Both the position numbers and the translations under genes were made by a program. The notes beneath the pieces are model-generated. The model was given only the letters and a program-made list of their open reading frames with translations. It did no database searches and was not told where the DNA came from. DNA of 64,000 nucleotides. Origin: Lysobacter sp. FW306-1B-D06B. GTDB lineage: Bacteria > Pseudomonadota > Gammaproteobacteria > Xanthomonadales > Xanthomonadaceae. The stretch spans positions 2,914,001-2,978,000 of the forward strand of contig NZ_CP151802.1 in assembly GCF_038446665.1 (NCBI RefSeq), written 5' to 3'. Shown here piece by piece: positions 3,767 to 30,446 of this stretch (position 1 is its first letter; each line of letters begins with the position of its first letter).

Positions 3767-4654
3767 ATGGAAGACGCTACCGCTACCTTCGGGCGATTGC
3801 GGCCTCGCATGCTGGGCGCGGCGTATCGCATGCTCGGCTCGTTGAGCGAGGCCGAGGACGTCGTGCAGGACGTCTGGCTGCGCTGGCACGACGCCAATCC
3901 GGCGCGCATCGAGAACGCCGAAGCCTGGCTGATCGCCGCGACCACGCGCCGTGCCATCGACCGCCTGCGCCTGGCGCGCAACGAGCGCGAGCACTATGTG
4001 GGCATCTGGTTGCCCGAGCCCGTGCTCACCGACGGCCCTTCCACGCCCGAGCAAGTGCAGGAAGCCTCCAGCGATCTGTCGATCGCCTTCCTCACCGTGC
4101 TCGAACGCCTTGCGCCCGACGCGCGCGCGGCGTTCCTGCTGCACGAAGTGTTCGAGGCGGACTACGCGCAGATCGCCGACATCCTGGGAAAGACCGAAGC
4201 GACGTGCCGCAAGATCGTGCAACGCGCGAAGGAGCACCTTCGCGAGGACCGCCCGCGCTACGTAGTCTCCGACCAGGCACACCAGCGGCTCATGCGCCGC
4301 TTCCTGGAAGCGGTGTCCAGCGGCGACTTCGCGGCGATGAAGACCCTGATGGCCGAGTCGGCGGTGCTCGTCGGCGACGGTGGCGGCGTCGTCACCAGCT
4401 TCCCCAAGCCCATGGTCGGCGGCGACCGCATCGCCGCGCTGCTGTACGCGGCGCGCCTGCGCTTCAAGGACGAGCTGCACATCCGCGGGGCCATCATCAA
4501 CGGCCGCATGGCCCTGCTGCGCTACATACACGACGAACTGGAATCCGTGCAGTCCTACGAGACGGACGGCGAACGCATCGTGCGCGTGTACGTGCAGCGA
4601 AATCCCGAAAAGCTCAGGCGTGTGGCGCGGCGGGAGGTGATGGCGATGAGTTGA
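3767..4654 (+). CDS. ECF41-family sigma factor with fused SnoaL-like domain
   Basis: A 295-residue extracytoplasmic-function sigma factor. Seen in order: sigma-2 (residues ~5-75, with GAAYRMLGSLSEAEDVVQDV), a linker containing WLPEP (near 89), sigma-4 (~115-165, DARAAFLLHEVFEADYAQIA), and a C-terminal NTF2/SnoaL-like domain with DGGG (near 206) and RNPEKL (near 278). WLPEP, DGGG and NPxKL are the known signatures of group ECF41, in which the fused C-terminal domain controls activity and no separate anti-sigma factor is needed. Family members often control a nearby COE-type oxidoreductase, epimerase or decarboxylase gene; the cupin, NmrA-like and SDR genes around it are candidates. No obvious ribosome site precedes the ATG. 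Confidence 0.93.
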   Translation: MEDATATFGRLRPRMLGAAYRMLGSLSEAEDVVQDVWLRWHDANPARIENAEAWLIAATTRRAIDRLRLARNEREHYVGIWLPEPVLTDGPSTPEQVQEASSDLSIAFLTVLERLAPDARAAFLLHEVFEADYAQIADILGKTEATCRKIVQRAKEHLREDRPRYVVSDQAHQRLMRRFLEAVSSGDFAAMKTLMAESAVLVGDGGGVVTSFPKPMVGGDRIAALLYAARLRFKDELHIRGAIINGRMALLRYIHDELESVQSYETDGERIVRVYVQRNPEKLRRVARREVMAMS

Positions 4655-18200: not shown

Positions 18201-19967
18201 CTCGCCGCTCAGCGTTTGCGTGCCGCCGTCGATGGCCAGGCCGCCGGCGCCGCCGATGCTGCCGCCGAAGTCGCCGTTCGCATCGGCCAGTACCAGCGTG
18301 TTGCCGCCCAGACCGACCGTGCCGTCGCCGGTGAGCGACTGCGCGCCGACATCGCCATCGGCCTGTGCGATGTCGAAGGTGCCGTCCGCGATGACATCGG
18401 AGTTGGCGACGCAGCCCTGCCCCGCGACCGCCAGTGTGGAGCCGGCGTGGATCACGGTATTGCCGCTGTAGGTGTTGCAGCCGCTGAGCGTCTGCGTGCC
18501 GCCTTCGATGGTGACGCCGCCGGTGCCGTCGATGGTACCGGCGAAGTCGCCGGTCGCGTCGGTCACGACCAGGCCGTTGTCGCCGAGCGCGACTTCGCCC
18601 GTCGCGCCGCCGGTGAGCGACTTCACGTTGACGGCGTCGTTGGAACCTTCGATGTCGAACGTGCCGTTGTTCACCACGTCCGAGGCGGCGATGCTGCCTT
18701 CGCCCGTCAACGCCAGCGTCGCGCCGTCGTCGATGGTGGTCGTGCCGGTGTAGGTGTTCTCGCCGGTCAGCGTGACGGAGCCGCCGTTGCCGGAATTGGT
18801 GATCGTCAGCTCGCCGGGCGTGCCGCCGTCGACGTCGGAGATCACGCCGCCGAATGTCGCGTCATGGCCGTTCTGGTCGATCGTGCCGCCGTCGCCGTCG
18901 ATGGTGAAGTCCAGGTCGACATCCGCGCCGTCGGTGTCGACCACCAGCGTGCCGCCTTCGAACGCGCCGTCGCTGGCGCCGTCCAGGTCGTCGGTGCCGG
19001 TCGTGGTGTCGATGACGGCCGTGGTCGGCAGGCCCGGCGTGGTCGGCGCGCCGCTGCCGGGGTTGGGCGCGATGGGACCGAAGGGCACGCCGTGGTCGAA
19101 CGTCAGGCCGGGCTGCTGATCGATGAGCAGGACCGGGCTGTTGACCTCGTCGTCGAGGTTGAACGTCAGGAAGCCCAGGCGATAGGTGCCCGACACGCTC
19201 ACCGAATAGGTGGCGATCTGCCAGCCCGTCGCGCCGTAGCTGCCGGTGGAATAGCTGCCGGTGCCCAGGTTGGTGGCGCCCAGCAGCGCGAACTGTGCGT
19301 TCTGGTTGTTCACCACGCCCAGCGCGAAAGGATCATCCACGTTCACCAGCGAGGTGAACGAACCGTCGTTGTACGGCTCGTAGTCGGTGGAGACGTACTG
19401 CCAGGCCATCGTGAACGCATCGCCGGCTTCCAGGACCAGATCCTGGTAGAGCCAGGCCGCATTGGTGAGCGAGGCCGCGCCCATCATCGACTGCACGTTG
19501 CTCTGGCTCTGCGCGGTCAGGCCCAGCGCGCTCAGGCCCGCGCCGACGTTGCCCGCCTGGCCTGCCTGCAGGGACGCCATGTAGTTCTGGTACGGCGTCA
19601 CCGTCCACAGGTGCGGGCCCGGTGCGGGGCCGACCTGGGAATCGAAATCGGTCATGCCGGTGACGACCGAAGCGCCCACGCCGGTCGATCCGTAGGAACC
19701 CGACGACTGCGATCCGGTGCCGCCGCCCGCGGTCCAGCCGCTCAGCGTGCCGTCCTCGAAGCTTGCGTTCTGGATGTCCACCGCAGCGAAGGCGGCCGTG
19801 GGCGAGAGCAGCAATGCCGCCAGCAGAGCCGCGCACATGCGCGTCATGGCCGGTGCGTCGTGCGTGGCGGCGGAACGAGCGCCCTTCACACGACCGCGGA
19901 CAAGCTCGGAAGCGACAACCCACTGGTTGAGCGCACGGTTCCAGACAACGCGAAAAACGTGATTCAT
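15213..19967 (-). CDS. Autotransporter adhesin with PATR repeats and three cysteine pairs
   Basis: A 1584-residue type Va autotransporter. Seen in order: an extended signal peptide opening MNHVFRVVWNRALNQWVVAS (ESPR type) with cleavage after AAFA near residue 62; an N-terminal domain (~63-300) beginning NASFEDGTLSGWT that resembles carbohydrate-binding jelly-roll modules; a beta-helix passenger with tandem PATR-type repeats (TLSGxNTYxG); and a C-terminal beta-barrel (~1310-1584) ending in ...SVRF, with the usual terminal Phe. The mature protein has only six cysteines, as three pairs each 22 residues apart, one helix turn, so disulfides across neighbouring rungs are likely. It may be an adhesin or surface structure; no protease triad is seen. 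Confidence 0.93.
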   Translation of the reverse strand: MNHVFRVVWNRALNQWVVASELVRGRVKGARSAATHDAPAMTRMCAALLAALLLSPTAAFAAVDIQNASFEDGTLSGWTAGGGTGSQSSGSYGSTGVGASVVTGMTDFDSQVGPAPGPHLWTVTPYQNYMASLQAGQAGNVGAGLSALGLTAQSQSNVQSMMGAASLTNAAWLYQDLVLEAGDAFTMAWQYVSTDYEPYNDGSFTSLVNVDDPFALGVVNNQNAQFALLGATNLGTGSYSTGSYGATGWQIATYSVSVSGTYRLGFLTFNLDDEVNSPVLLIDQQPGLTFDHGVPFGPIAPNPGSGAPTTPGLPTTAVIDTTTGTDDLDGASDGAFEGGTLVVDTDGADVDLDFTIDGDGGTIDQNGHDATFGGVISDVDGGTPGELTITNSGNGGSVTLTGENTYTGTTTIDDGATLALTGEGSIAASDVVNNGTFDIEGSNDAVNVKSLTGGATGEVALGDNGLVVTDATGDFAGTIDGTGGVTIEGGTQTLSGCNTYSGNTVIHAGSTLAVAGQGCVANSDVIADGTFDIAQADGDVGAQSLTGDGTVGLGGNTLVLADANGDFGGSIGGAGGLAIDGGTQTLSGENTYGGTTTISSGATLALTGEGSIANSDVVAQGHFDLGGGDGDAHVKSLTGNGTVDLGGNGLLLTDAHGDFGGVIDGQGGVNIAGGTQTFSGCNTYTGATLIDRGATLSLAGQGCIAGSDVVAEGTLDIGGASGDIDVQSLTGGGNVELGGNVLVLTDARGEFSGDIAGDGGLAIEGGTQTLSGDNAFTGGLVVNGGTLQVSSDANLGHGTVSIGEATLRTTDGFTSDNDFALTSTKSIVDTAGHDVVLNGDLSGNGVLNKVGDGTLTLKGQNTQDGINVKGGTLEFASDAALGRDGSVVTIADNTTLRTLDAMTISHEIFVDNTRSAVFDTNGFDVVVSGDIGGSGIVQKLGGGVLTLSGHNSQVLMQVQGGSIAVTSQEAAGAIGGDIYIGQDGNFTALTGMNVTQNVHVTGQNARFETRGAATTTLTGTVDGSACLIKSGAGRLDMRGVGANAIGACIEQGDLGFNSTFTGNVWVYADGTASGSGRVEGAMDVRGVLSPGNSPGTLVVTGNVLQHAGSTFVADVDGRTAGNGAGHFDTLWLVGANSVYTAAGTLEPRLRGITGAATNAFTPNVGDTFAIVQAQGGVDGSYTGLVQPLSGLPANARFDVRYEANSVVLAVTPNSYAAAMSTGNTAAVGGAIDATRVTAGIRTTGDASRLQSSLMGLDLGATAAAFEQLDGEFHASARTVLADDARRLREAAFDRMRAGHSPLAEAAEPGSAVWAHALVAGGSLDGDGNAASVDYNGSGLLIGADHRFEDGWQLGVMAGSERTDANVVARASKGDADTLHVGLYVDGGWGAFAVRGGVGLAQHAIDSQRTVALPGMNQRLVADYDATTNQVFVEGGYTIDGERGSLEPYLQYARVTTESDAFSETGGSLALHVADEETTLDVSTLGLRGALSLTSRGTGAGWFDLRGGLGWRHVSDDVVSTSRMSWSSGGDFSVAGAPLAEDAAVAELGVSAWLNPVTQLELGYEGQFADEARDHQATARLSVRF
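17652..18761 (-). repeat. Four tandem 92-94-residue repeats within the autotransporter
   Basis: Units begin (minus strand) at 18761, 18479, 18203 and 17927, with a divergent fifth at 17651, so the periods are 282, 276, 276 and 276 bp. Units 1 and 3 start ENTY and carry GEGS; units 2 and 4 start CNTY and carry GQGC. The pattern alternates, suggesting a two-unit block that was duplicated. Each unit ends in a GGTQTxSG motif before the next. Confidence 0.9.
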
Positions 19968-20400
19968 TCGGATGCGGCTCCCCACCGCAGGACAGGACGA
20001 AGAACGAACGAGCAGGCGCCGGCGCACACCGCGGGCCGGCAACGACGGACGTTGCGGACGCGTTGGTGCAATGGGCATGCCGGCGCGGAACCCGCGCTGC
20101 AGGCGGTTCCGGCGTGGAGGTCCCCGCTCGCCCTCGTTAACGTCATCGATCCGATTTACTTGATCGCGTTCACACTTTTTCATTCCGAAACCGCTCATTC
20201 GGCAAAGTTCGGGCCGCGAGGCGCGATTGAGCGGGTCGCGGTGAGGGAACCAGGCGGCCCGCCGCTTTGTATCGCCGTGTATCCACCGCCCGACGGGCCA
20301 CCTTTCCCGACAAAACGCCCGCAATCGCGACACGAGCGCGATACCGCCCGGCCTCGAAATGGCGCCACCGGAAAACACCGCCGCCTTCGAGGAAACCCCG
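19968..20400. other. Divergent intergenic region between autotransporter and DoxX genes
   Basis: 433 bases without a gene, holding the promoters for both sides. The stretch 20135-20210 is clearly richer in A and T than its surroundings and is the likely core promoter area. GGAACC at 20246-20251 followed 16 bases later by TGTATC could be an ECF-type promoter for the DoxX/HvfA operon, but the match is weak. No palindromic operator stands out. Confidence 0.5.
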
Positions 20401-21075
20401 ATGTCCACCGTCTCCGCTGCATCCCCTGCGCCCCTGCTGTCCCGCGTCGACGGCGTCGGCGCGTGGCTCGCCCCGCTCGGTCTGCGCGTGCTGCTGGCGT
20501 GGGAGTTCTTCGAGGCCGGCCGCGAGAAGTTGCAGGGCGAGAACTGGTTCGCCGAGCTGGCCGACAAGTTTCCGCTGCCGTTCTCGCTGCTGGGCGCCAA
20601 CGTCAACTGGACGCTGGCGACGTGGACGGAGCTGCTGGGCAGCATCGCGCTGCTGATCGGCCTAGGCACGCGCTACGCGGCGGCGACGCTGTTCGTGGTG
20701 ACGGTCGTTGCGATCCATGCCGTGCACTGGCCGTCGGAGTGGTCGAGCCTCGCCGAGCTCTGGCAGGGCTACGCGATCAGCAATGACGGCTACGGCAACT
20801 ACAAGCTCCCGCTGATCTACCTGGCGATGTTGCTGCCGCTGATGTTCGGCGGCGCCGGACGCCTGAGCGTGGATCACCTCATCGCTTCGCGCCGCGCATC
20901 CACCGCCGCCGCGACGCCCGACACGCTGGCCTGGGGCGTGGTGCTGTTCGCCATCGGCACGACCGTCTCGCTGCTGCTGCCGTGGGCCGGTGCCGCGCTC
21001 GCCGTTTCCGGCGTCGCCCTGATGGCCTGGCCGCGCCGCCGCAGGACCGCGTCGGAACTGCTGGCCGCGGCCTGA
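20401..21075 (+). CDS. DoxX-family membrane protein, first gene of the Hvf-like operon
   Basis: A 224-residue integral membrane protein. Seen: DoxX-type opening [20 protein letters not shown], about five hydrophobic segments, and a central extramembrane part containing [20 protein letters not shown]. DoxX proteins commonly accompany DUF692/DUF2063 pairs, and in known Hvf and gig-type operons they are thought to help electron transfer or export of the modified product. The ATG at 20401 follows GAGGAAACCCCG; a longer in-frame start lacks a ribosome site. It lies 75 bp before the precursor-like gene. Confidence 0.85.
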
Positions 21076-21150
21076 TCGCCCTTTTCGATGTTCCCGCGCC
21101 ATGCACGGCGCAACCCCCGCACGGCCCCCGTGCACACCTGGAGACTCACC

Positions 21151-21606
21151 ATGTCACGCAACACCACCCGCAACACCGCCGGCATGATCGGCATCGCCCT
21201 CGCCGGCCTGGTCCTGGGCAATTCCGCCTTCGCGATGCAGCCCCTCGCGCAGGGCTACATGCTCGCCGCCAGCCACGCCGCGGGCGAAGGCAAGTGCGGT
21301 GAAGGCAAGTGCGGCAGCACGCAGGCCAAGCCGGCCAAGGGCGCCGCGTCGAAGGCCGCCGAAGGCAAGTGCGGCGAAGGCCAGTGCGGCGACGCACGCT
21401 TCAACAAGACCGACGCCAATGACGACGGCCTCGTCTCCAAGGCCGAGTACCTGAAGGCCGTGCCGACCGGCGAAGGCTGGGCCGACAAGGACGCCAACGC
21501 CGACGGCTTCATCTCCGAGCGCGAAGCCTACGACTACACGAAGGCGCGCTTCGAAGCCAACGGCAAGAAGGTCCCGATCGGCCGCTTCGCCGCCTTCCCG
21601 GAATAA
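21151..21606 (+). CDS. hvfA: HvfA-like RiPP precursor with EGKCG repeats fused to EF-hand loops
   Basis: A 151-residue exported protein. Seen: a signal peptide (residues 1-28, ending NSAFA), then four five-residue motifs, EGKCG at 46-50, 51-55 and 71-75 and EGQCG at 76-80, arranged as two pairs. Two canonical 12-residue EF-hand loops follow: [12 protein letters not shown] (88-99) and [12 protein letters not shown] (114-125). In the HvfA family, EGKCG cysteines are converted by the DUF692 enzyme to oxazolone/thioamide copper ligands; here HvfB and HvfC homologues follow directly. Known HvfA precursors are short and lack EF-hands as far as I recall, so the calcium-binding module is unusual. It may bind copper in the periplasm with calcium-dependent folding. 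Only four cysteines, all in the motifs. Confidence 0.85.
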
Positions 21607-21661
21607 CCCCGTCCCGCCGCGCCCCGCGATGCCATCGCGGGGCCCTCATCGAGTCCACGCC

Positions 21662-22516
21662 ATGACGCAACTCCCTTCCGCTTCCGCCGGCCTCGGCCTG
21701 CGCCGCAGCCTGATTCCAGAGCTGCTGGCGATGGACGACGGCGCCGTGGACTTCCTCGAACTGGCGCCGGAAAACTGGATCGGCGTCGGCGGCCGCTCCG
21801 GCGAACAGCTCGCGCAGTTGTCGGCGCGGCTCCCGTTGAGCGCGCACGGGCTGTCGCTCTCGCTCGGCGGCACCGAACCGCTGGACATGAAGCTGCTGCT
21901 GGGCACGCGCGAGTTGCTGGAACGCCACGGCATCGCGCTCTACAGCGAGCACCTGAGCTACGCCTCCGACGACGGCCATCTCTACGACCTGATGCCGATT
22001 CCGTTCACCGATGAAGCCGTGCGTCACGTTGCCGCGCGCATCCGCGTGGTGCAGGACGTGCTGGGGCGCCGCATCGCGGTGGAGAACGTCTCCTACTACG
22101 CCGCGCCGTACCAGGCGCTGGCCGAGATCGATTTCGTCCGCGCCGTGCTCGACGAGGCCGACTGCGACCTGCTGCTGGACGTGAACAACCTCTACGTGAA
22201 CTCGATCAACCACGGCTACGACGCGCAGGCGTTCCTTGCGCGGCTGCCGGGCGAGCGCATCGCCTCGTACCACATCGCCGGCCATTTCGACGAAGACATC
22301 GACCTCAAGGTCGACACGCACGGCGCGCCGGTGAAGGCCGACGTGTGGGACCTGCTGGCCGACGCGTACCGCCGCTTCGGCGTGCGTCCGACGCTGCTGG
22401 AACGCGACTTCAACTTCCCGCCGCTGTCCGAACTGCTGACCGAAACCAACCGCATCCGCACGATGCAGGCCGCCTACGCCGACCGTGCGCGCCTGCTGGA
22501 GCTGGCCCATGCATGA
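21662..22516 (+). CDS. hvfB: DUF692 multinuclear non-heme iron enzyme (MNIO), HvfB-like
   Basis: A 284-residue TIM-barrel enzyme of the MNIO family, which uses two or three irons to modify peptide cysteines. Seen: [56 protein letters not shown] and [10 protein letters not shown], which carry the conserved His, Glu, Asp and Asn metal ligands of DUF692. Expected to modify the EGKCG cysteines of the protein encoded 55 bp upstream. The start at 21662 ([14 protein letters not shown]) gives family length. It overlaps the hvfC-like gene by 8 bp. Confidence 0.93.
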
Positions 22517-23288
22517 GCTTCGCCAGCAGCAGTACACGCTTGCGCGTCACCTGCGCGACCCGTCCGCGCACCCGCCGCCGCCCGGCCTGGAGCCGCGCCG
22601 GGTGAAGGTGTACGCGGAACTGTTCTTCAACTCGATCGAGGGCTTGCTCTCCGGCGGCTTCCCGGTGATCCGCCAGACGCTCGGCACGACCGCGTGGAAG
22701 GCGCTGGTGCGCGAGTTCTATGCGAACCATCGCAGCCGCACGCCGTTGTTCCCGCAGGTCGCGGGCGAGTTCGTCGATTACCTGGACGAGCGTGCGGATG
22801 ACACGACGCTGCCGCCGTGGCTGCCGGAGCTGGCGCATTACGAGTGGATCGAGCAACTGCTGCTCACGCACGACGCGTCGCATCCGCTCGACGATGCCGA
22901 CATCGACCCGCTCGACGGCGTGCTGCGCCTGTCGCCACTGGCGATGCCGCTGGCCTACCGCTGGCCGGTGACGGAGATCGGCCCGGACTTCGTGCCCGAC
23001 GCACCGCCGCCGGAGGCGACCACGCTGGTCGTGCATCGCGATGCCGACCACGAGGTGCGTTTCGTGCGCATCGCGCCGCTGGTCTATCACCTGCTGGTGT
23101 CGATCCAGGCGCATGCGCGCAGCGGTCGCGGGCATCTGCTGGCGCTGGCGGACGAAGCCGGCGTCGATCCCATCGAATTCCAGGCACACGCCCTGCCGGT
23201 GCTGCACGCCTTGCGTGCACAGGGCGTGGTCTTCGTTCCCCCGCAACTCCCGCACCTTCCCTCCCCCAACGCAATGGAATCCCCGTGA
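22509..23288 (+). CDS. hvfC: DUF2063 partner protein, HvfC-like
   Basis: A 259-residue protein of the family always paired with DUF692. Seen: an N-terminal DUF2063 domain (residues ~1-95; [20 protein letters not shown] and [11 protein letters not shown]) and a C-terminal domain (~145-240) like the HvfC peptide-recognition module. It is thought to deliver the precursor to the MNIO enzyme. ATG at 22509 lies within the last codons of hvfB; its stop overlaps the next ATG (TGATG), tying the Ohr gene to this operon. Confidence 0.92.
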
Positions 23289-23710
23289 TGAGCACTTCCC
23301 TCGAAACCGTCATCTACACCGCGCACACCCACGTCACCGGCGGCCGCAACGGCACCGGCCGTTCCAGCGACGGCGCGATCGATGTCCTGCTGAGCACGCC
23401 CGGCTCGAACAAGCCCGGCACGAACCCGGAGCAGCTGTTCGGCATCGGCTATTCGGCCTGTTTCATCGGCGCGATTGGCTTTGCCGCGAGCGAACTCAAG
23501 GTGAAGCTGCCCGAAGGCTTCGGCGTCGATGCCGACGTCTCGCTCGGCAAGATCGCCACCGGCGAGTACCAGCTCGCGGTGAAGCTCAACGTCCGCCTGC
23601 CGGGCCTGGACGAGGCAACGCGCCGCCAGCTCGTCGAGATGGCACACCGCACCTGCCCGTATTCGCGCATGACGCGCGGCGAGGTGGAGGTGGAGATCGC
23701 GACCTCGTGA
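23288..23710 (+). CDS. ohr: Ohr-family peroxidase in the Hvf-like operon
   Basis: A 140-residue OsmC/Ohr-fold hydroperoxide reductase. Seen: TNPEQLFGIGYSACFIGAIG (first Cys) and MAHRTCPYSRMTRG (second Cys), the pair needed for peroxide reduction, plus a C-terminal EVEVEI strand. Length is typical. The ATG shares a base with the hvfC-like stop and GGAATC lies seven bases before it, so it is translationally coupled. Coupling a peroxidase to a copper-peptide operon makes sense if the cells meet copper and oxidants together. A composite palindromic repeat follows. Confidence 0.92.
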   Translation: MSTSLETVIYTAHTHVTGGRNGTGRSSDGAIDVLLSTPGSNKPGTNPEQLFGIGYSACFIGAIGFAASELKVKLPEGFGVDADVSLGKIATGEYQLAVKLNVRLPGLDEATRRQLVEMAHRTCPYSRMTRGEVEVEIATS

Positions 23711-23717
23711 CAACAAA

Positions 23718-23835
23718 GCCCCTCTCCCGCCTGGGGGAGAGGGGTTGGGATGAGGGCCCGAAGCACCGGATGCTCCAATCGCAACGCCTGCCCTCATCCG
23801 CCTGCCGGCACCTTCTCCCGCACGCGCGAGAAGGG
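23718..23835. repeat. Composite palindromic repeat, copy 1
   Basis: A left hairpin (GCCCCTCTCCCGCCTGGGGG then AGAGGGGTTGGGATGAGGGC) and a right hairpin (CCTTCTCCCG / CGCGAGAAGGG) flank a variable 40-base centre; TGCCCTCATCCGCCTGCCGG joins the two. The same composite, with a different centre, is at 51436-51556. It lies between the Ohr gene and the thioredoxin gene. Confidence 0.85.
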
Positions 23836-23901
23836 ACGCTTCGGCCGACGCCTCTTCTTCCACTTTCGGAGGAAGATCTTCTGCACCACGGAGGTAGAAC
23901 C

Positions 23902-24441
23902 ATGTTCCGTTCCATTCTCGCCACGCTCGCGCTGGGCCTGTCGCTGTTCATCGCCGGCTGCGCGCCGGGCGCGCAGGCCGAGCCGGCACGCCCGGCACCG
24001 GCGCCGGAATTCACCGGAATCGCGCGATGGCTCAACGCACCGCCGCAGACCATGGCGGGCCTCAAGGGCAAGGTGGTGCTGGTCGAGTTCTGGACGTACT
24101 CGTGCATCAACTGCATCCACGTCCTGCCGCATGTGAAGCAGTGGCATGAGCGCTACCGCGACGACGGTCTGGTGGTGATCGGCGTGCACACGCCCGAGTA
24201 CGCCGAGGAGCAGAGCACCGCCAACGTGCAGCGCGCCATCGAGCGCTTCGGCATCACCTATCCGGTGGCGCAGGACAACCTGTACAAGACCTGGGACGCC
24301 TACGGTAATCGCTTCTGGCCGGCGTTCTACCTCGTCGATCGCGACGGCCGCATCGTCCATCGCCATTACGGCGAAGGCGATTACGAGGCCACCGAAGCCC
24401 GCATCCGCCAGCTGCTGGCGGCCAAGCCGGTTGCGCACTGA
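23902..24441 (+). CDS. TlpA-like thioredoxin lipoprotein
   Basis: A 179-residue periplasmic thioredoxin-fold protein. Seen: a lipoprotein signal with lipobox FIAGC (Cys near residue 19), then a thioredoxin domain with the redox motif WTYSCINCIHVLP (C-I-N-C near residue 65), and the cis-Pro region as NRFWPAFYLVDRDG. SCINC is characteristic of the TlpA/DipZ-C-terminal subgroup. CGGAGGTAGAACC is a strong ribosome site. It may keep periplasmic or copper-site cysteines reduced, which would suit the Hvf-like genes upstream, although a repeat separates it from them. Confidence 0.9.
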   Translation: MFRSILATLALGLSLFIAGCAPGAQAEPARPAPAPEFTGIARWLNAPPQTMAGLKGKVVLVEFWTYSCINCIHVLPHVKQWHERYRDDGLVVIGVHTPEYAEEQSTANVQRAIERFGITYPVAQDNLYKTWDAYGNRFWPAFYLVDRDGRIVHRHYGEGDYEATEARIRQLLAAKPVAH

Positions 24442-24504
24442 CGTACCACGGCACCACCCTGCGCAGTGGCACAATCACCGACATCGATGGACGCCGGCGC
24501 CCGA

Positions 24505-25245
24505 ATGGAACACGTAGACCACATCCTCGTCGTGGATGACGACCGCGAGATCCGCCAGATGATCGCGGACTATCTGGAAAAGAACGGACTGCGCGCCACC
24601 GCCGTGGCCGACGGCCGCGAGATGCGCGCGGTGCTCGACACCCACGCGGTCGACCTGATCGTGATGGACCTGATGATGCCCGGCGAGGACGGCCTCACGC
24701 TCACGCGCAACCTGCGCGCCGGCAAGCATCGCGCGGTCCCGGTGGTGATGCTGACCGCGCGCGACGACCAGACCGATCGCATCATCGGTCTGGAGATGGG
24801 CGCGGACGACTACGTCGCCAAGCCGTTCGCGCCGCGCGAGTTGCTGGCGCGCATCAAGGCGGTGATCCGGCGCACGCGCATGCTTCCGCCGAACCTGCAG
24901 GTGACCGAGGCCGCGCGCATGCTCGCCTTCGGTCGCTGGCGCCTGGACACCACCTCGCGCCACTTGCTCGATCCCGAAGGCACGGTCGTGGCGCTGAGCG
25001 GCGCGGAGTTCCGCCTGCTGCGCGTGTTCCTCGACCATCCCAACCGCGTGCTCAGTCGCGACCAGCTGCTCAACCTGACCCAGGGCCGCGATGCCGAGCT
25101 GTTCGATCGCTCCATCGACCTGCTCGTGAGCCGCCTGCGCCAACGCCTGCTCGACGACGCGCGCGAGCAGAGTTACATCAAGACCGTGCGCAGCGAAGGC
25201 TACGTCTTCAGCATGGCGGTGACGGTCGTGGGCGAGGACGAATGA
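24505..25245 (+). CDS. OmpR-family response regulator
   Basis: A 246-residue two-component regulator. Seen: receiver domain with ILVVDDDREIR (acid pair), phospho-acceptor LIVMDLMMPGEDG, Thr in VVMLTAR and Lys in YVAKPFAPRELL; then a winged-helix DNA-binding domain (residues ~145-235) with SGAEFRLLRVFLDHPNRVLS and IKTVRSEGYVF. Start uncertain: ATG at 24505 or 24487, or GTG at 24466; none has a good ribosome site. The stop overlaps the kinase start (ATGA). It may regulate the neighbouring Hvf-like genes, but no target site is recognised. Confidence 0.93.
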   Translation: MEHVDHILVVDDDREIRQMIADYLEKNGLRATAVADGREMRAVLDTHAVDLIVMDLMMPGEDGLTLTRNLRAGKHRAVPVVMLTARDDQTDRIIGLEMGADDYVAKPFAPRELLARIKAVIRRTRMLPPNLQVTEAARMLAFGRWRLDTTSRHLLDPEGTVVALSGAEFRLLRVFLDHPNRVLSRDQLLNLTQGRDAELFDRSIDLLVSRLRQRLLDDAREQSYIKTVRSEGYVFSMAVTVVGEDE

Positions 25246-26561
25246 GCACCGCATCGCGCGAGGGTTCGCGCTGGCTGCCGCGCTCGATGGCCTCGCGGCT
25301 GTACCTGCTGCTGGCCGGCGGCCTGCTGATCGCGCACGGGCTTTCGTTCGGCATGCTCTTCTACGAGCGTTACGAATCGGCCACCTCGATGCTGATGACC
25401 AACCTGGAGCAGGACGTGGTCGTCGCGGTGAACCTTCTCGATCACCTGCCGCCGGAGGAACGCGCGCACTGGTTACCGATGCTGCGGCGACGCACGTTCC
25501 ACTACACGCTCGATCCCGCGCAGGAAGGCACACCGCTGCCGAACGAGTCCACGCGCGAGATGGCCGGGATGATCGCCAACGCCCTGGGCCCGCGCTATCC
25601 GACACGCGCGCGCCTGGTGTCGCGCGATCCCGAACGCTTCCAGGTGCAGGTGCGCTTGAGCGACGGCAGTCCGCTGGTGATCGAAGTGCAGCCGTCGGTG
25701 ATGCCGTTGGCGAAGTGGCTTCCGTACGTGCTGGCAACACAGTTGGCCTTGTTGCTGCTGTGCGCCTGGGCCGCGGTGCGCCTGGCGACGCGTCCGCTCG
25801 CGCGGCTGGCCAATGCGGCCGAAACGCTGCGCCCCGGCGGCGACGGCGCGCGCCTGCCCACCGGCGGCCCGACCGAGGTCGCGCAGGCCGTGGGCGCGTT
25901 CAATGCGATGCAGGACCGCATCGCCCGCTACATGAAGGAACGGCTGCAGATCCTGGCGTCCATTTCGCACGACCTGCAGACGCCGATCACGCGCCTGCGG
26001 CTGCGCGCCGAAGCGATGGGCGAGTCGCCCGAGCGCGAGAAGATCATCGACGACCTCGACCAGATGCAGCACCTCGTGCGCGAAGGCATCGCCTACGCAC
26101 GCAGCGCGCACGGCGATGCGGAAGCGCCCGCTCGCGTGGACCTCGACGCCTTCCTCGACAGCCTGGTTTGCGATTACCTCGACACCGGACGCAACGTGAG
26201 TTTCTCGGGCCGTGTCGGCATGCCGGTGGTCACGCGACCGCAGGCGTTGCGGCGCGTGGTCGTGAACCTCGTCGACAACGCGCTCAAGTACGCCGGCGCG
26301 GCGGAAGTGGAGGTGTCCGGCAGTGACGACGGCGCGGTGATCCACGTACGCGATCGCGGGCCCGGCATTCCGGAAGCGGAGTTGTCGAAGGTGCTGGAAC
26401 CGTTCTATCGATTGGAAGCTTCGCGCAATCGCGATACCGGCGGCACCGGGCTGGGGCTGGCGATCGCCACGCAACTCGCCGATGCCATCGGCGCCACGCT
26501 CACGCTGCGCAATCGCGACGGCGGCGGGCTGGAGGCGATCGTGCGTTTGCCGCGAGCTTGA
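25242..26561 (+). CDS. Two-component sensor histidine kinase
   Basis: A 439-residue membrane kinase. Seen: transmembrane segment 1 (residues ~20-40), a periplasmic sensor of about 110 residues rich in charged residues, transmembrane segment 2 (~160-180), HAMP (~180-235), HisKA with ASISHDLQTPITRLRLRAEA (His near 245), and HATPase with N box NLVDNALKYAG, G1 DRGPGIP and G2 GGTGLGLAIA. The layout is EnvZ-like. Translationally coupled to the regulator. The periplasmic sensor has no cysteine or His-rich metal site that I can see, so the signal is open. Confidence 0.93.
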   Translation: MSTASREGSRWLPRSMASRLYLLLAGGLLIAHGLSFGMLFYERYESATSMLMTNLEQDVVVAVNLLDHLPPEERAHWLPMLRRRTFHYTLDPAQEGTPLPNESTREMAGMIANALGPRYPTRARLVSRDPERFQVQVRLSDGSPLVIEVQPSVMPLAKWLPYVLATQLALLLLCAWAAVRLATRPLARLANAAETLRPGGDGARLPTGGPTEVAQAVGAFNAMQDRIARYMKERLQILASISHDLQTPITRLRLRAEAMGESPEREKIIDDLDQMQHLVREGIAYARSAHGDAEAPARVDLDAFLDSLVCDYLDTGRNVSFSGRVGMPVVTRPQALRRVVVNLVDNALKYAGAAEVEVSGSDDGAVIHVRDRGPGIPEAELSKVLEPFYRLEASRNRDTGGTGLGLAIATQLADAIGATLTLRNRDGGGLEAIVRLPRA

Positions 26562-26576
26562 GGGTCGCTTGTCCTA

Positions 26577-26624
26577 CCCCTCTCCAGCACGCGGCGACCG
26601 AAGGGAGTGCAGAGCTGAGAGGGG
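26577..26624. repeat. Palindromic repeat of the GCGACCGAAGGGAGTGCAGA family
   Basis: CCCCTCTCC and GAGAGGGG arms flank the core GCGACCGAAGGGAGTGCAGA. The core recurs inverted near 28930-28955. It lies between the kinase gene and a LysR gene on the same strand. Confidence 0.7.
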
Positions 26625-26681
26625 CTAATGTCGGCATCAGCCAAGTCGATACGATTGCCATAGACGCACCCGGAGACGCCC

Positions 26682-27599
26682 GTGGACCGCATCGAGGCCA
26701 TGAAGATCTTCATCGCCGCATTGGACGAAGGCAGCCTTGCAGGCGCCAGTCGGCGCACCGGGCGTTCGGCGGCGGCGGTGAGTCGCGCCGTCGCCTATCT
26801 GGAAGCGCACGTCGGCGTGCCACTGCTGCACCGGACCACGCGCTCGATCAAGCTCAGCGAGGCCGGCGAGCGTTACGCCGCCGCGTGCCGCAAGGTGCTG
26901 GCCGACCTGGAGGAAGCCGACCGCCAGGCCGCGGGCGAACGCTCCGTGCCGCGCGGCATGCTGACCATCACGTCCACCGTGTTCGCCGGTGTCGAATTGC
27001 TGCAGCCCATCGTCGATGCCTTCATCGACGAGTTCCCCACCGTCAACGTGCGCATGCACCTTCTAGAACGCCCGGTCAATCTGGTCGAAGAAGGCATGGA
27101 CCTGGCGCTGCGCATCACCCATCTGGCCGATTCGACGCTCGTTGCGCACCACGTGGGCCAGGCGCGACGCGTCGTCGTCGCCTCGCCCCGTTACCTGGCG
27201 CTGCATCCGCGCATCGAGGAACCGGCGGATCTGGCCAAGCACCAGATCGTCACGACCGCGCACATGGGCCTGGACTCGTGGACGTTCCCGCCGCTGGAGG
27301 GATCGAACGTGCCGCGTGCCGTGTCGTTCGCGCCGCGCCTGGTGGTCAACAACGTGCGCGCGGCGATCGCCTCCGCCGTCGCCGGACACGGCGTCACGCG
27401 CATGCTGTCGTACCACGTCGCGCCGGAAGTCGAAGCCGACGCGTTGCGCGTCGTGCTTGCGCATGCCGAGCCCGCGCTCATCCCGGTGAGCCTGGTGTCG
27501 CCGCAGGGCCGCCTGTCGGTTCCCAAGGTGCGCGCCTTCGTCGATTTCGCCCTGCCCCGGCTGCGCGCGACCTTCGCGCGGCGCACGCTTCCCGCCTGA
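26682..27599 (+). CDS. LysR-family transcriptional regulator
   Basis: A 305-residue regulator of the CrgA/DsdC-like subgroup. Seen: N-terminal HTH (residues ~5-65; GSLAGASRRTGRSAAAVSRA then VAYLEAHVGVPLLHRTTRS), and a type-2 periplasmic-fold effector domain from residue ~90. The start is a GTG at 26682 with CGGAGACGCCC before it, giving MDRIEAMKIF, which is the usual start of this subgroup; an ATG six codons in lacks a ribosome site. It lies upstream of an SDR and a tautomerase gene in the same direction and may control them. Confidence 0.92.
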   Translation: MDRIEAMKIFIAALDEGSLAGASRRTGRSAAAVSRAVAYLEAHVGVPLLHRTTRSIKLSEAGERYAAACRKVLADLEEADRQAAGERSVPRGMLTITSTVFAGVELLQPIVDAFIDEFPTVNVRMHLLERPVNLVEEGMDLALRITHLADSTLVAHHVGQARRVVVASPRYLALHPRIEEPADLAKHQIVTTAHMGLDSWTFPPLEGSNVPRAVSFAPRLVVNNVRAAIASAVAGHGVTRMLSYHVAPEVEADALRVVLAHAEPALIPVSLVSPQGRLSVPKVRAFVDFALPRLRATFARRTLPA

Positions 27600-29582: not shown

Positions 29583-30446
29583 ATGAACCCCGTCGTCTTC
29601 CACCGCACGCCCGTCGGCGATGCGACGATCTTCCACCGCGAGGCCGGCCCGCGCGATGCGCCTGCCGTGTTGTTGCTGCACGGATTCCCCACGTCCTCGC
29701 ACATGTTCCGGCACCTGATCCCGCGGCTCGCGGACCGGTTCCGCGTGATCGCGCCGGACCTGCCCGGCTTCGGCTTCAGCGAAGCGCCCGGGCGCGATCG
29801 CTTCGCGTACACCTTCGATCACCTGGCGCAGGTGATGCAGGACTTCACCGATGCGATCGGGCTGGAGCGACATGCGCTGTACGTCTTCGACTACGGCGCG
29901 CCGGTGGGCTGGCGCATGGCGATGGCGCGGCCGGAGCGCATCACGGCGCTGATCACGCAGAACGGCAATGCCTACGAAGTTGGACTCAGCGACGGCTGGG
30001 GCCCGACGCGCGCGTACTGGGACGATCCCTCGCCCGCCAACCGCGACGCCATGCGCGCCATGCTCACGCTGGAGACCACGCGCTGGCAGTACGTGCACGG
30101 CGCGCCCGACGAATCGCAGGTGGCACCGGAGGCGTACTGGCTGGATGTCGCGCTGATGTCGCGGCCCGGAAACGACGAGATCCAGCTCGACCTGTTCCTC
30201 GACTACGCGAACAACGTCGCGCTGTATCCGCAGGTCCACGCCTACTTCGCCCGCCACCGGCCGCCGCTGCTGGCGGTGTGGGGCCGGCACGATCCCTTCT
30301 TCCTGCCTGCCGGCGCGGAAGCGTTCCGGCGCGATCTGCCCGATGCCGAGGTGCATCTGCTCGACACCGGCCACTTCGCGCTGGAAACCCATGTCGACGA
30401 GATCGCACAGCGGATGCGCGAGTTCCTGCAGCGACAGGCGCTCTAG
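29583..30446 (+). CDS. Alpha/beta hydrolase, haloalkane dehalogenase/epoxide hydrolase-like
   Basis: A 287-residue hydrolase. Seen: oxyanion motif LLLHGFPTSSHMFRHLIPRL, nucleophile elbow YVFDYGAPVGWRMAM with Asp instead of Ser (typical of epoxide hydrolases and dehalogenases), acid in VWGRHDPFF and base in LDTGHFALETH. The second half-site DLPGFGFSEAPG is also conserved. AGAGGTGCCC precedes the ATG. The substrate cannot be told from the sequence. Confidence 0.88.
   Translation: MNPVVFHRTPVGDATIFHREAGPRDAPAVLLLHGFPTSSHMFRHLIPRLADRFRVIAPDLPGFGFSEAPGRDRFAYTFDHLAQVMQDFTDAIGLERHALYVFDYGAPVGWRMAMARPERITALITQNGNAYEVGLSDGWGPTRAYWDDPSPANRDAMRAMLTLETTRWQYVHGAPDESQVAPEAYWLDVALMSRPGNDEIQLDLFLDYANNVALYPQVHAYFARHRPPLLAVWGRHDPFFLPAGAEAFRRDLPDAEVHLLDTGHFALETHVDEIAQRMREFLQRQAL

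What the first reader, a model, noticed from the sequence alone, without database searches (positions are those of the whole stretch)
20401..23710. Hvf/bufferin-like operon whose precursor fuses EGKCG motifs to a pair of EF-hand loops
The exported protein at 21151 has four five-residue EGxCG motifs (46-50, 51-55, 71-75, 76-80) followed by two perfect 12-residue EF-hand loops (88-99, 114-125). Directly downstream are a DUF692 MNIO enzyme and a DUF2063 partner, and upstream a DoxX protein. EGKCG cysteines are known substrates of HvfB-type enzymes, which make copper-binding oxazolone/thioamide groups. I do not know of a described precursor with a calcium-binding module after the core. The core would then be held between a signal peptide and a folded follower, so calcium could gate folding, export or copper binding.
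Basis: partly seen in the sequence, partly recalled or inferred. Interest (0 to 1): 0.88.

Follow-up and report, generated by a model that had tools for sequence, protein, structure and literature searches.

The report
Calcium-binding, copper-RiPP precursor operon (EfhP type)
This is a Lysobacter-type operon for a small exported protein that joins four cysteine motifs, of a kind that enzymes turn into copper-binding rings, to a calcium-binding domain; the same design is known from Pseudomonas aeruginosa (EfhP), and the link suggests that a protein studied as a calcium sensor may also be a chemically modified copper binder.

Summary
Antoine et al. [quoted passage not shown] aeruginosa EfhP (PA4107) has four EGKCG repeats, EF loops at 88-99/115-126 and DUF692 and DUF2063 genes downstream.

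EfhP supplies data for the calcium half: Kd 13.7 uM, molten globule without Ca2+. The EF pair should thus be unfolded in the cytoplasm, where HvfB/HvfC act, and fold after export. The chemistry is now assigned as 5-thiooxazole, not oxazolone/thioamide.

New here: (1) one tandem BfmR-type box (GATACA-N4-GATACA) in 64 kb, 118 bp upstream of the operon, and a BfmRS orthologue downstream. Such boxes precede 51 of 54 EF-tailed precursors (background windows 9 of 1360; EF-in-the-middle precursors 0 of 15, but 2 of 2 in Pseudomonas; EF-less 0 of 9). (2) The genome has a second operon whose EF pair sits BETWEEN EGKCG blocks, a layout absent from the text I read. (3) Both EF loops keep all five ligand positions in 347 of 361 homologues.

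Modification, copper binding and calcium gating are untested. Verdict: new member of a known kind, worth linking to EfhP.

The parts
20264..20283 (-). tandem BfmR-type box, GATACACGGC-GATACAAAGC, ending 118 bp before the ATG of the first gene
   Evidence: only tandem GATACA-N4/5-GATACA in the 64 kb, even with one mismatch allowed; motif GATACAnnGC from Cao et al. 2014 (passages)
20401..21075 (+). HvfX (DoxX-family) gene
   Evidence: NF050144 149.4 bits, cut-off 80; PF07681
21151..21606 (+). EF-hand captophorin / EfhP-type precursor, 151 aa
21151..21234 (+). signal peptide, residues 1-28 (cleavage AFA|M inferred by eye)
   Evidence: F27 100% and A28 99% in 120 homologues; no predictor run
21244..21261 (+). 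conserved segment LAQGYM (residues 32-37), proposed recognition motif (inference)
   Evidence: pattern in 114 of 120 and 118 of 121 homologues, and by eye in the nine EF-less precursors printed
21286..21315 (+). [10 protein letters not shown], residues 46-55
21361..21390 (+). [10 protein letters not shown], residues 71-80
21412..21447 (+). EF-hand loop 1, [12 protein letters not shown], residues 88-99
21490..21525 (+). EF-hand loop 2, [12 protein letters not shown], residues 114-125
21662..22516 (+). HvfB-family MNIO (DUF692); start 21662 or 21629
   Evidence: NF003818 415 bits, cut-off 360; closest solved relative 3bww; R14 R15 D249 F250 counted from 21662
22509..23288 (+). HvfC partner protein (DUF2063 plus NGO1945_C), overlapping the MNIO gene by 8 bases
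   Evidence: NF050145 275.4 bits, cut-off 142; 3dee
23288..23710 (+). Ohr-family peroxiredoxin, start overlapping the HvfC stop by one base
   Evidence: TIGR03561 147.1 bits, cut-off 88.85; overlap read
23902..24441 (+). ResA/TlpA-like redoxin, probable lipoprotein (by eye), CINC motif
   Evidence: PF08534 51.1 bits, cut-off 26.6; a homologue in 6 of 43 MNIO loci
24505..25245 (+). BfmR-type response regulator (searched as 24511-25242)
   Evidence: reciprocal best match, 76% identical, to the regulator of an efhP-type locus in another genome; next best 47% in both directions
25242..26561 (+). BfmS-type sensor kinase
   Evidence: 57% identical to the kinase of the same efhP-type locus (one direction only); Pfam HisKA/HAMP/HATPase

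Best explanation
A Lysobacter-type counterpart of the P. aeruginosa efhP-PA4106-PA4105 operon, encoding a calcium-binding captophorin (MNIO-made copper-binding RiPP protein). Proposed steps. (1) A BfmR-type response regulator encoded downstream binds the tandem box upstream of HvfX and switches the operon on. (2) In the cytoplasm the signal peptide, perhaps with the LxxGYx[LV] segment, docks on HvfC, and HvfB turns the four EGxCG cysteines into 5-thiooxazoles. The EF pair stays molten because cytoplasmic Ca2+ (about 0.1 uM, recalled) is far below a Kd near 14 uM. (3) Sec exports the unfolded chain and the signal peptide is cut. (4) The EF pair folds on periplasmic Ca2+, leaving a flexible copper-binding arm on a soluble calcium-held domain. 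Shown by others in relatives: 5-thiooxazoles and Cu binding in captophorins; signal-peptide dependence in HvfA; Ca binding and Ca-dependent folding in EfhP; BfmR control of efhP. Shown here: gene order, motif and ligand conservation, box conservation, regulator orthology. Inferred: that this protein is modified, binds copper, and that calcium timing matters in the cell.
For: Gene families over curated cut-offs. FonB specificity and catalytic residues have counterparts by motif and number: R14 R15 and D249 F250 here; R15 R16 D249 F250 in FonB (FonB sequence not seen). FonBC tolerates A, R or T at core position 3 (Q was not among the variants named), so EGQCG is plausible. The last two EGxCG are near-invariant in 120 homologues. 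All five EF ligand positions are kept in both loops in 113/120, 116/121 and 118/120 homologues of three searches, 361 distinct sequences. The EF pair is modelled at pLDDT 85-91 (10-residue means, 81-130) and residues 17-72 under 50; top PDB matches are EF-hand proteins, best E 0.015. EfhP: same layout and operon, Kd 13.7 uM, molten without Ca. HvfA without signal sequence gets under one modification per peptide. Tandem box: 51 of 54 EF-tailed precursors against 9 of 1360 background windows. Regulator is a reciprocal best match at 76%. In 247 sampled genomes of the family, all 143 with the EGKCG repeat domain also have an MNIO; 50 have MNIO only, 54 neither (lists copied by hand).
Against: No modification, copper or calcium experiment exists for this protein. 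It fails the full-length HvfA model (31.8 against 95) and its EF hands are below Pfam's cut-off. Gly at EF position 6 is kept in both loops in only 63 of 120 close homologues, so affinity may vary. The EfhP orthologue L115 has GL, not GY, in the proposed recognition motif. EfhP work points to calcium and iron; the EfhP passages I read report no copper phenotype. No box was counted at L037, L085 or L112, and none lies upstream of the other two precursor genes of this genome. 42 of the 51 box-bearing loci are Pseudomonadaceae, so they are not independent. The window's boxes lie on the minus strand and could serve the divergent autotransporter-like gene instead. efhP also depends on CarSR.
Confidence: 0.72

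Rival explanations
1. Calcium sensor first: the EF pair exposes a hydrophobic face when Ca2+ is bound and docks on a partner in the envelope (as proposed for EfhP); the EGxCG arm senses a metal (the EfhP authors suggest iron) and signals rather than sequesters.
For: EfhP binds Ca2+, becomes more hydrophobic, and disabling Ca binding abolishes Ca induction of pyocyanin (abstract); efhP deletion disturbs Ca control of iron-uptake genes; a two-component system is encoded beside the operon.
Against: The EfhP binding work I read of used signal-less protein made in E. coli from the efhP coding region alone, so the cysteines were presumably unmodified; the EGKCG chemistry characterised elsewhere binds copper; no partner is named in the passages I read.
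Confidence: 0.3
2. The EF pair is only a solubility and stability handle: a calcium-stabilised domain that keeps a copper-loaded peptide from aggregating, with no gating or signalling.
For: EF-less fontiphorin forms large particles and precipitates when loaded with copper; the EF pair is found either after or inside the core, as expected of a passive module.
Against: A passive handle would not need both sets of calcium ligands kept in 347 of 361 homologues, unless folding itself depends on them, as in EfhP.
Confidence: 0.3
3. The EF pair is the substrate-recognition follower for HvfB/HvfC.
For: EF-tailed and EF-in-the-middle precursors go mostly with different MNIO clades (5 label changes on the tree, shuffled mean 16.0).
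Against: EF-less precursors share the leader motif and have MNIOs of the same family; the signal peptide is the leader in HvfA; EF position varies; clades also follow taxonomy and the sample was seeded with an EF-tailed query.
Confidence: 0.08
4. The cysteines are not modified; the protein is an ordinary periplasmic EF-hand protein with thiols.
For: 32 EF-tailed genes among 80 loci have no MNIO in the fetched stretch (up to 5 kb each side), and the genome has such a solo copy.
Against: 25 of those 32 were checked, with three EF-less loci: all 28 genomes have an MNIO elsewhere; here MNIO and HvfC follow directly.
Confidence: 0.08

Closest known systems
EfhP (PA4107) of Pseudomonas aeruginosa, operon PA4107-PA4106-PA4105
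   Different: HvfX first and Ohr last in one run of genes here; redoxin and BfmRS directly downstream. I did not see the PAO1 EfhP sequence itself
[quoted passage not shown] 2025, PMC12452194)
   Same: short EGKCG domain, two EF hands at the C terminus, unstructured core, MNIO/DUF2063/DoxX cluster
   Different: nothing found in the architecture; BfmR control and the EF-in-the-middle sister layout are not in the sections and passages I read
HvfA/oxazolin, fontiphorin and gonophorin (captophorins)
   Same: EGKCG core modified by an MNIO with its HvfC/PME1 partner; Sec signal peptide and HvfX in the HvfA case
   Different: no EF hands are mentioned for them in what I read
Bufferins Buf1/Buf2
   Same: MNIO plus DUF2063 plus DoxX, exported
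   Different: no DUF2282 match in Pfam; MNIO scores below the BufB cut-off (266.5 against 310)
Lanmodulin
   Same: EF hands with a short gap between loops (14 residues here; 12 in the alignment)
   Different: scores 14.2 against a cut-off of 135; serine at loop position 9 here (Asp in LanM recalled)

Membership tests
EfhP / Buf_EGKC|EF-hand_5 chimaera | short EGKCG domain followed by two EF hands | tested here: met
   note EF-hand_5 is under Pfam's gathering score
EfhP / Buf_EGKC|EF-hand_5 chimaera | N-terminal signal peptide or membrane helix | tested here: met
   read by eye from the sequence (AFA|M) and conserved; no predictor was run
EfhP / Buf_EGKC|EF-hand_5 chimaera | MNIO and DUF2063 genes directly downstream | tested here: met
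EfhP / Buf_EGKC|EF-hand_5 chimaera | BfmR-type box upstream and BfmR orthologue encoded (sequence level only) | tested here: met
   known for EfhP, not a feature used by Antoine et al. in what I read
EfhP / Buf_EGKC|EF-hand_5 chimaera | binding of that regulator to the box | not testable with these tools
   -
EfhP / Buf_EGKC|EF-hand_5 chimaera | Ca2+ binding and Ca-dependent folding | not testable with these tools
   shown for EfhP by others
captophorin (EGKCG class) | HvfB-family MNIO with RR and DF specificity residues | tested here: met
   against; matched by motif and number, FonB sequence not seen
captophorin (EGKCG class) | HvfC/PME1 partner | tested here: met
captophorin (EGKCG class) | 5-thiooxazole on Cys, copper binding | not testable with these tools
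HvfA sensu stricto (NF050188 equivalog) | score over 95 bits | tested here: not met
   31.8 bits
bufferin Buf1/Buf2 | BufB-type MNIO (310 bits) | tested here: not met
   266.5 bits
lanmodulin | NF053806 over 135 bits | tested here: not met
   14.2 bits

The most novel reading that the evidence does not exclude
EfhP-family 'calcium sensors' are thiooxazole-bearing copper-binding proteins whose calcium domain acts as a compartment switch: unfolded while the cytoplasmic enzyme works and while Sec threads the chain, folded once in the calcium-rich periplasm. They form the core of a BfmR regulon kept in Pseudomonadaceae and part of the Lysobacteraceae. If so, the EfhP biochemistry published so far was done on the unmodified form, and its Ca and Fe phenotypes need re-reading as copper/redox phenotypes. 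Two separate layouts (EF pair after, or between, the core blocks) would mean that the switch matters more than its place.
Probability: 0.4. Interest if true: 0.75.

Novelty: new member of a known kind. Interest (0 to 1): 0.52.

Why it matters
It ties together two literatures that barely touch in the texts I searched: the Ca2+-sensor work on EfhP (0 occurrences of DUF692 and MNIO in the main texts of the 2022 and 2024 papers; the 2014 paper does name DUF692) and the MNIO/captophorin work (Antoine et al. name EfhP once in the text as an example). The joined view gives direct tests: the mass of native EfhP-type protein, the folding state at cytoplasmic and periplasmic calcium, and copper binding. 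The conserved BfmR-type box adds a regulator, so the inducing signal can be looked for in a non-pathogen.

Tried and rejected
Lanmodulin-like rare-earth binding: weak hits only, loop position 9 is Ser; set aside. EF pair as recognition follower: disfavoured. Plasmid carriage: no match (tblastn, E 1e-5) among 72,556 plasmid records. Sigma-70-like promoters in 19900-26700: none found; terminator-like sites near chance (4 against a mean of 3.0, sd 1.9). First MNIO extraction by regex found one locus only and was repeated with a wider pattern, which still missed three of 45 loci (L036, L091, L099); the tree is therefore of 42 rows, seeded by an EF-tailed query, quick method, with a flagged long-branch join (L108, L112), and shows only clustering. 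L052 and L060 are counted apart because their MNIO lies upstream of the precursor. L087 is counted with the EF-tailed solo set although its EF loops are degenerate. In six loci (L035, L036, L037, L056, L066, L083) the stretch before HvfX was searched for boxes besides the stretch before the precursor. L085 was counted as a box miss because its HvfX start was not in my table; a one-mismatch tandem lies at 4150, about 340 bp before its HvfX match. Some loci come from one organism (L050/L061, L054/L067). PAO1 EfhP itself was not found (one search lists 120 of 1714 hits; a look through the 362 proteins then held found no published loop); a genome with EfhP's loop I was found in 1 of 25 genomes, whose second loop differs from the published one by one residue.

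Papers: Antoine 2025 abstract, sections 14, 15, 21 and passages; Gadgil 2025 abstract, sections 6, 10-13 and passages; Manley 2026 abstract and passages; Sarkisova 2014 section 14 and passages; Kayastha 2022 abstract, sections 5 and 7, part 1 of 2 of section 11, passages; mBio 2024 (PMC11559002), Cao 2014 (PMC4148453) and PMC8025907 passages only; Junger 2026 not held, known from a citation in Manley. That the EF-in-the-middle layout is undescribed rests on paper searches and on those sections and passages; figures and supplements were not seen.
Full report
1. The observation. The gene run is HvfX (20401-21075), precursor (21151-21606), MNIO (21662 or 21629 to 22516), HvfC (22509-23288) and an Ohr peroxiredoxin (23288-23710). 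HvfC and Ohr each start inside the gene before them, so Ohr probably belongs to the operon. HvfX, MNIO, HvfC and Ohr pass curated equivalog or subfamily cut-offs; the precursor passes the HvfA repeat-domain model NF050137 but not the full-length HvfA model.

2. It is a known architecture. Antoine et al. [quoted passage not shown] EfhP of P. aeruginosa has EF loops at 88-99 and 115-126 and is operonic with a DUF692 and a DUF2063 gene. The 2024 mBio paper reports four EGKCG repeats in EfhP and suggests iron sensing. I did not see the PAO1 sequence. The genes around it fit what the papers say of PA4101-PA4107: regulator and kinase, a ferric-reductase-like gene (by eye), HvfX, HvfC, MNIO.

3. Chemistry. 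The EGKCG class is now assigned 5-thiooxazoles, with revision of the oxazolin structure, and products bind copper. FonB residues that set specificity or catalysis (R15 R16, D249, F250) have counterparts by motif and number at R14 R15, D249 and F250. Only the two-repeat, not the one-repeat, fontiphorin peptide was modified; this precursor has two pairs.

4. Conservation. In 120 homologues found with the window protein the last two EGxCG motifs are essentially invariant and each residue of the first two is present in 92-95%. Both EF loops keep all five ligand positions in 113 of 120, 116 of 121 and 118 of 120 proteins of three searches (361 distinct sequences); with Gly6 in both loops as well, 63, 113 and 118. 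These are the best 120 of 313, 1225 and 1714 hits (the second set also holds its query), so distant ones are not represented. The model of the window protein has a mean pLDDT of 62 and is confident only for the EF pair; that of the second layout is weaker (EF pair 81-83, mean 57). Top PDB matches of both are EF-hand proteins, none with E under 0.001, as expected for so small a domain.

5. A second layout in the same genome. The second MNIO of this genome (G000:C1:2288752-2289564) follows a 121-aa precursor with the order EGKCG - EF - EF - [10 protein letters not shown]. Of the 120 hits listed for it, 107 have this order by a strict pattern (10 with one loop matched, 2 without the first motif, 1 without the last). 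Among 80 loci found with the EF-tailed alignment, I class 17 as this layout, 54 as EF-tailed and 9 as EF-less. MNIOs of the two layouts cluster mostly apart (42 rows, 5 label changes, shuffled mean 16.0, 0 of 200 shuffles as low), though taxonomy contributes and two Pseudomonas EF-in-the-middle loci group with EF-tailed ones. A third, solo EF-tailed gene lies about 6 kb before the window.

6. Dependence on MNIO. In 247 sampled genomes of the family, 143 have the EGKCG repeat domain and all 143 have an MNIO; 50 have MNIO without it, 54 neither (Fisher p about 1e-25, but the genomes are related). Of 32 EF-tailed loci without MNIO in the fetched stretch, 25 were checked together with three EF-less ones, and all 28 genomes have an MNIO elsewhere; there was no control set of genomes without such a gene.

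7. Recognition. A motif of the type LxxGYx[LV] follows the signal peptide in 114 of 120 and 118 of 121 homologues and, by eye, in the nine EF-less precursors printed; L115 has GL for GY. HvfA without its signal sequence is hardly modified. So the recognition element is probably N-terminal, not the EF pair.

8. Regulation. BfmR directly activates PA4107-PA4106-PA4105 and its motif is GATACAnnGC; in ChIP-seq/RNA-seq the efhP promoter is among its top three sites and efhP the most activated gene. The window has a perfect tandem of the motif at 20264-20283, the only tandem in 64 kb even at one mismatch; of 5000 single-base shuffles of the 400-bp region, 0 gave a perfect tandem and 5 one with a mismatch. 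Single half-sites with one mismatch are at chance level in the window (35 against 36). The downstream response regulator is the reciprocal best match of the one at the efhP-type locus of G286 (76%, next best 47%). In the 80 loci, a tandem box with at most one mismatch in 12 lies within 350 bp upstream in 17 of 20 EF-tailed operons (10 perfect), 2 of 2 with MNIO upstream (2) and 32 of 32 solo genes (13); in 0 of 15 EF-in-the-middle operons of Lysobacteraceae type, 2 of 2 Pseudomonas ones and 0 of 9 EF-less ones; and in 9 of 1360 background windows of the EF-tailed loci. Many Pseudomonas loci have two such tandems on opposite strands, the window one. The 51 positive loci fall in six families, 42 of them Pseudomonadaceae. 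Regulator or kinase homologues over 50% identical lie inside 13 of 43 MNIO loci and in none of 37 without MNIO.

9. Mechanism and weight. Ca-free EfhP is a molten globule and Ca2+ binds at 13.7 uM; cytoplasmic calcium is far lower (recalled) and periplasmic calcium reflects or exceeds the outside. Hence the proposal that the EF pair is a compartment-dependent folding switch on a copper-binding arm. What is shown is anatomy and conservation; modification, copper and in-cell calcium effects are inferred.

10. Verdict. A real, well-conserved member of a described but little-studied class. The value lies in the link to EfhP and BfmRS and in the second layout, not in the fusion itself.

Noticed in passing
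L002:2359-2721 (minus), G000:C1 near 2.289 Mb: Second captophorin operon of the same genome: precursor with the EF pair between EGKCG blocks, then MNIO and HvfC; a PhoU-like ORF lies on its upstream side (by eye).
   Followed up: partly
L003:1336-1809, about 6 kb before the window: Solo EF-tailed precursor, six EGxCG, EF loop 1 with His at position 6, no MNIO in the 3-kb locus, no BfmR-type tandem upstream.
   Followed up: partly
window 23288-23710: Ohr peroxiredoxin overlapping the HvfC stop; an Ohr homologue lies within 4 kb of the MNIO in 7 of 43 loci.
   Followed up: partly
window 23902-26561: ResA/TlpA-like redoxin and BfmRS-type two-component system; homologues of all three lie beside EF-tailed operons in Lysobacter, Stenotrophomonas and Steroidobacter (6 of 43 loci), in changed order.
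   Followed up: yes
32 of the loci L038-L087 (Pseudomonas, one Lysobacter): EF-tailed precursors without MNIO in the fetched stretch; all 32 carry the tandem box (at most one mismatch) upstream.
   Followed up: partly
window 30219-30228 (minus): One further perfect single GATACAnnGC half-site.
   Followed up: no
window 15213 to about 19950 (minus): Large autotransporter-like gene with passenger repeats, divergent from the operon (by eye from the translation; no family search run); it shares the intergenic stretch with the box.
   Followed up: no
window 21412-21525: Only 14 residues between the two EF loops (14 or 15 in nearly all homologues), shorter than in calmodulin (about 24, recalled) and near lanmodulin.
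   Followed up: partly
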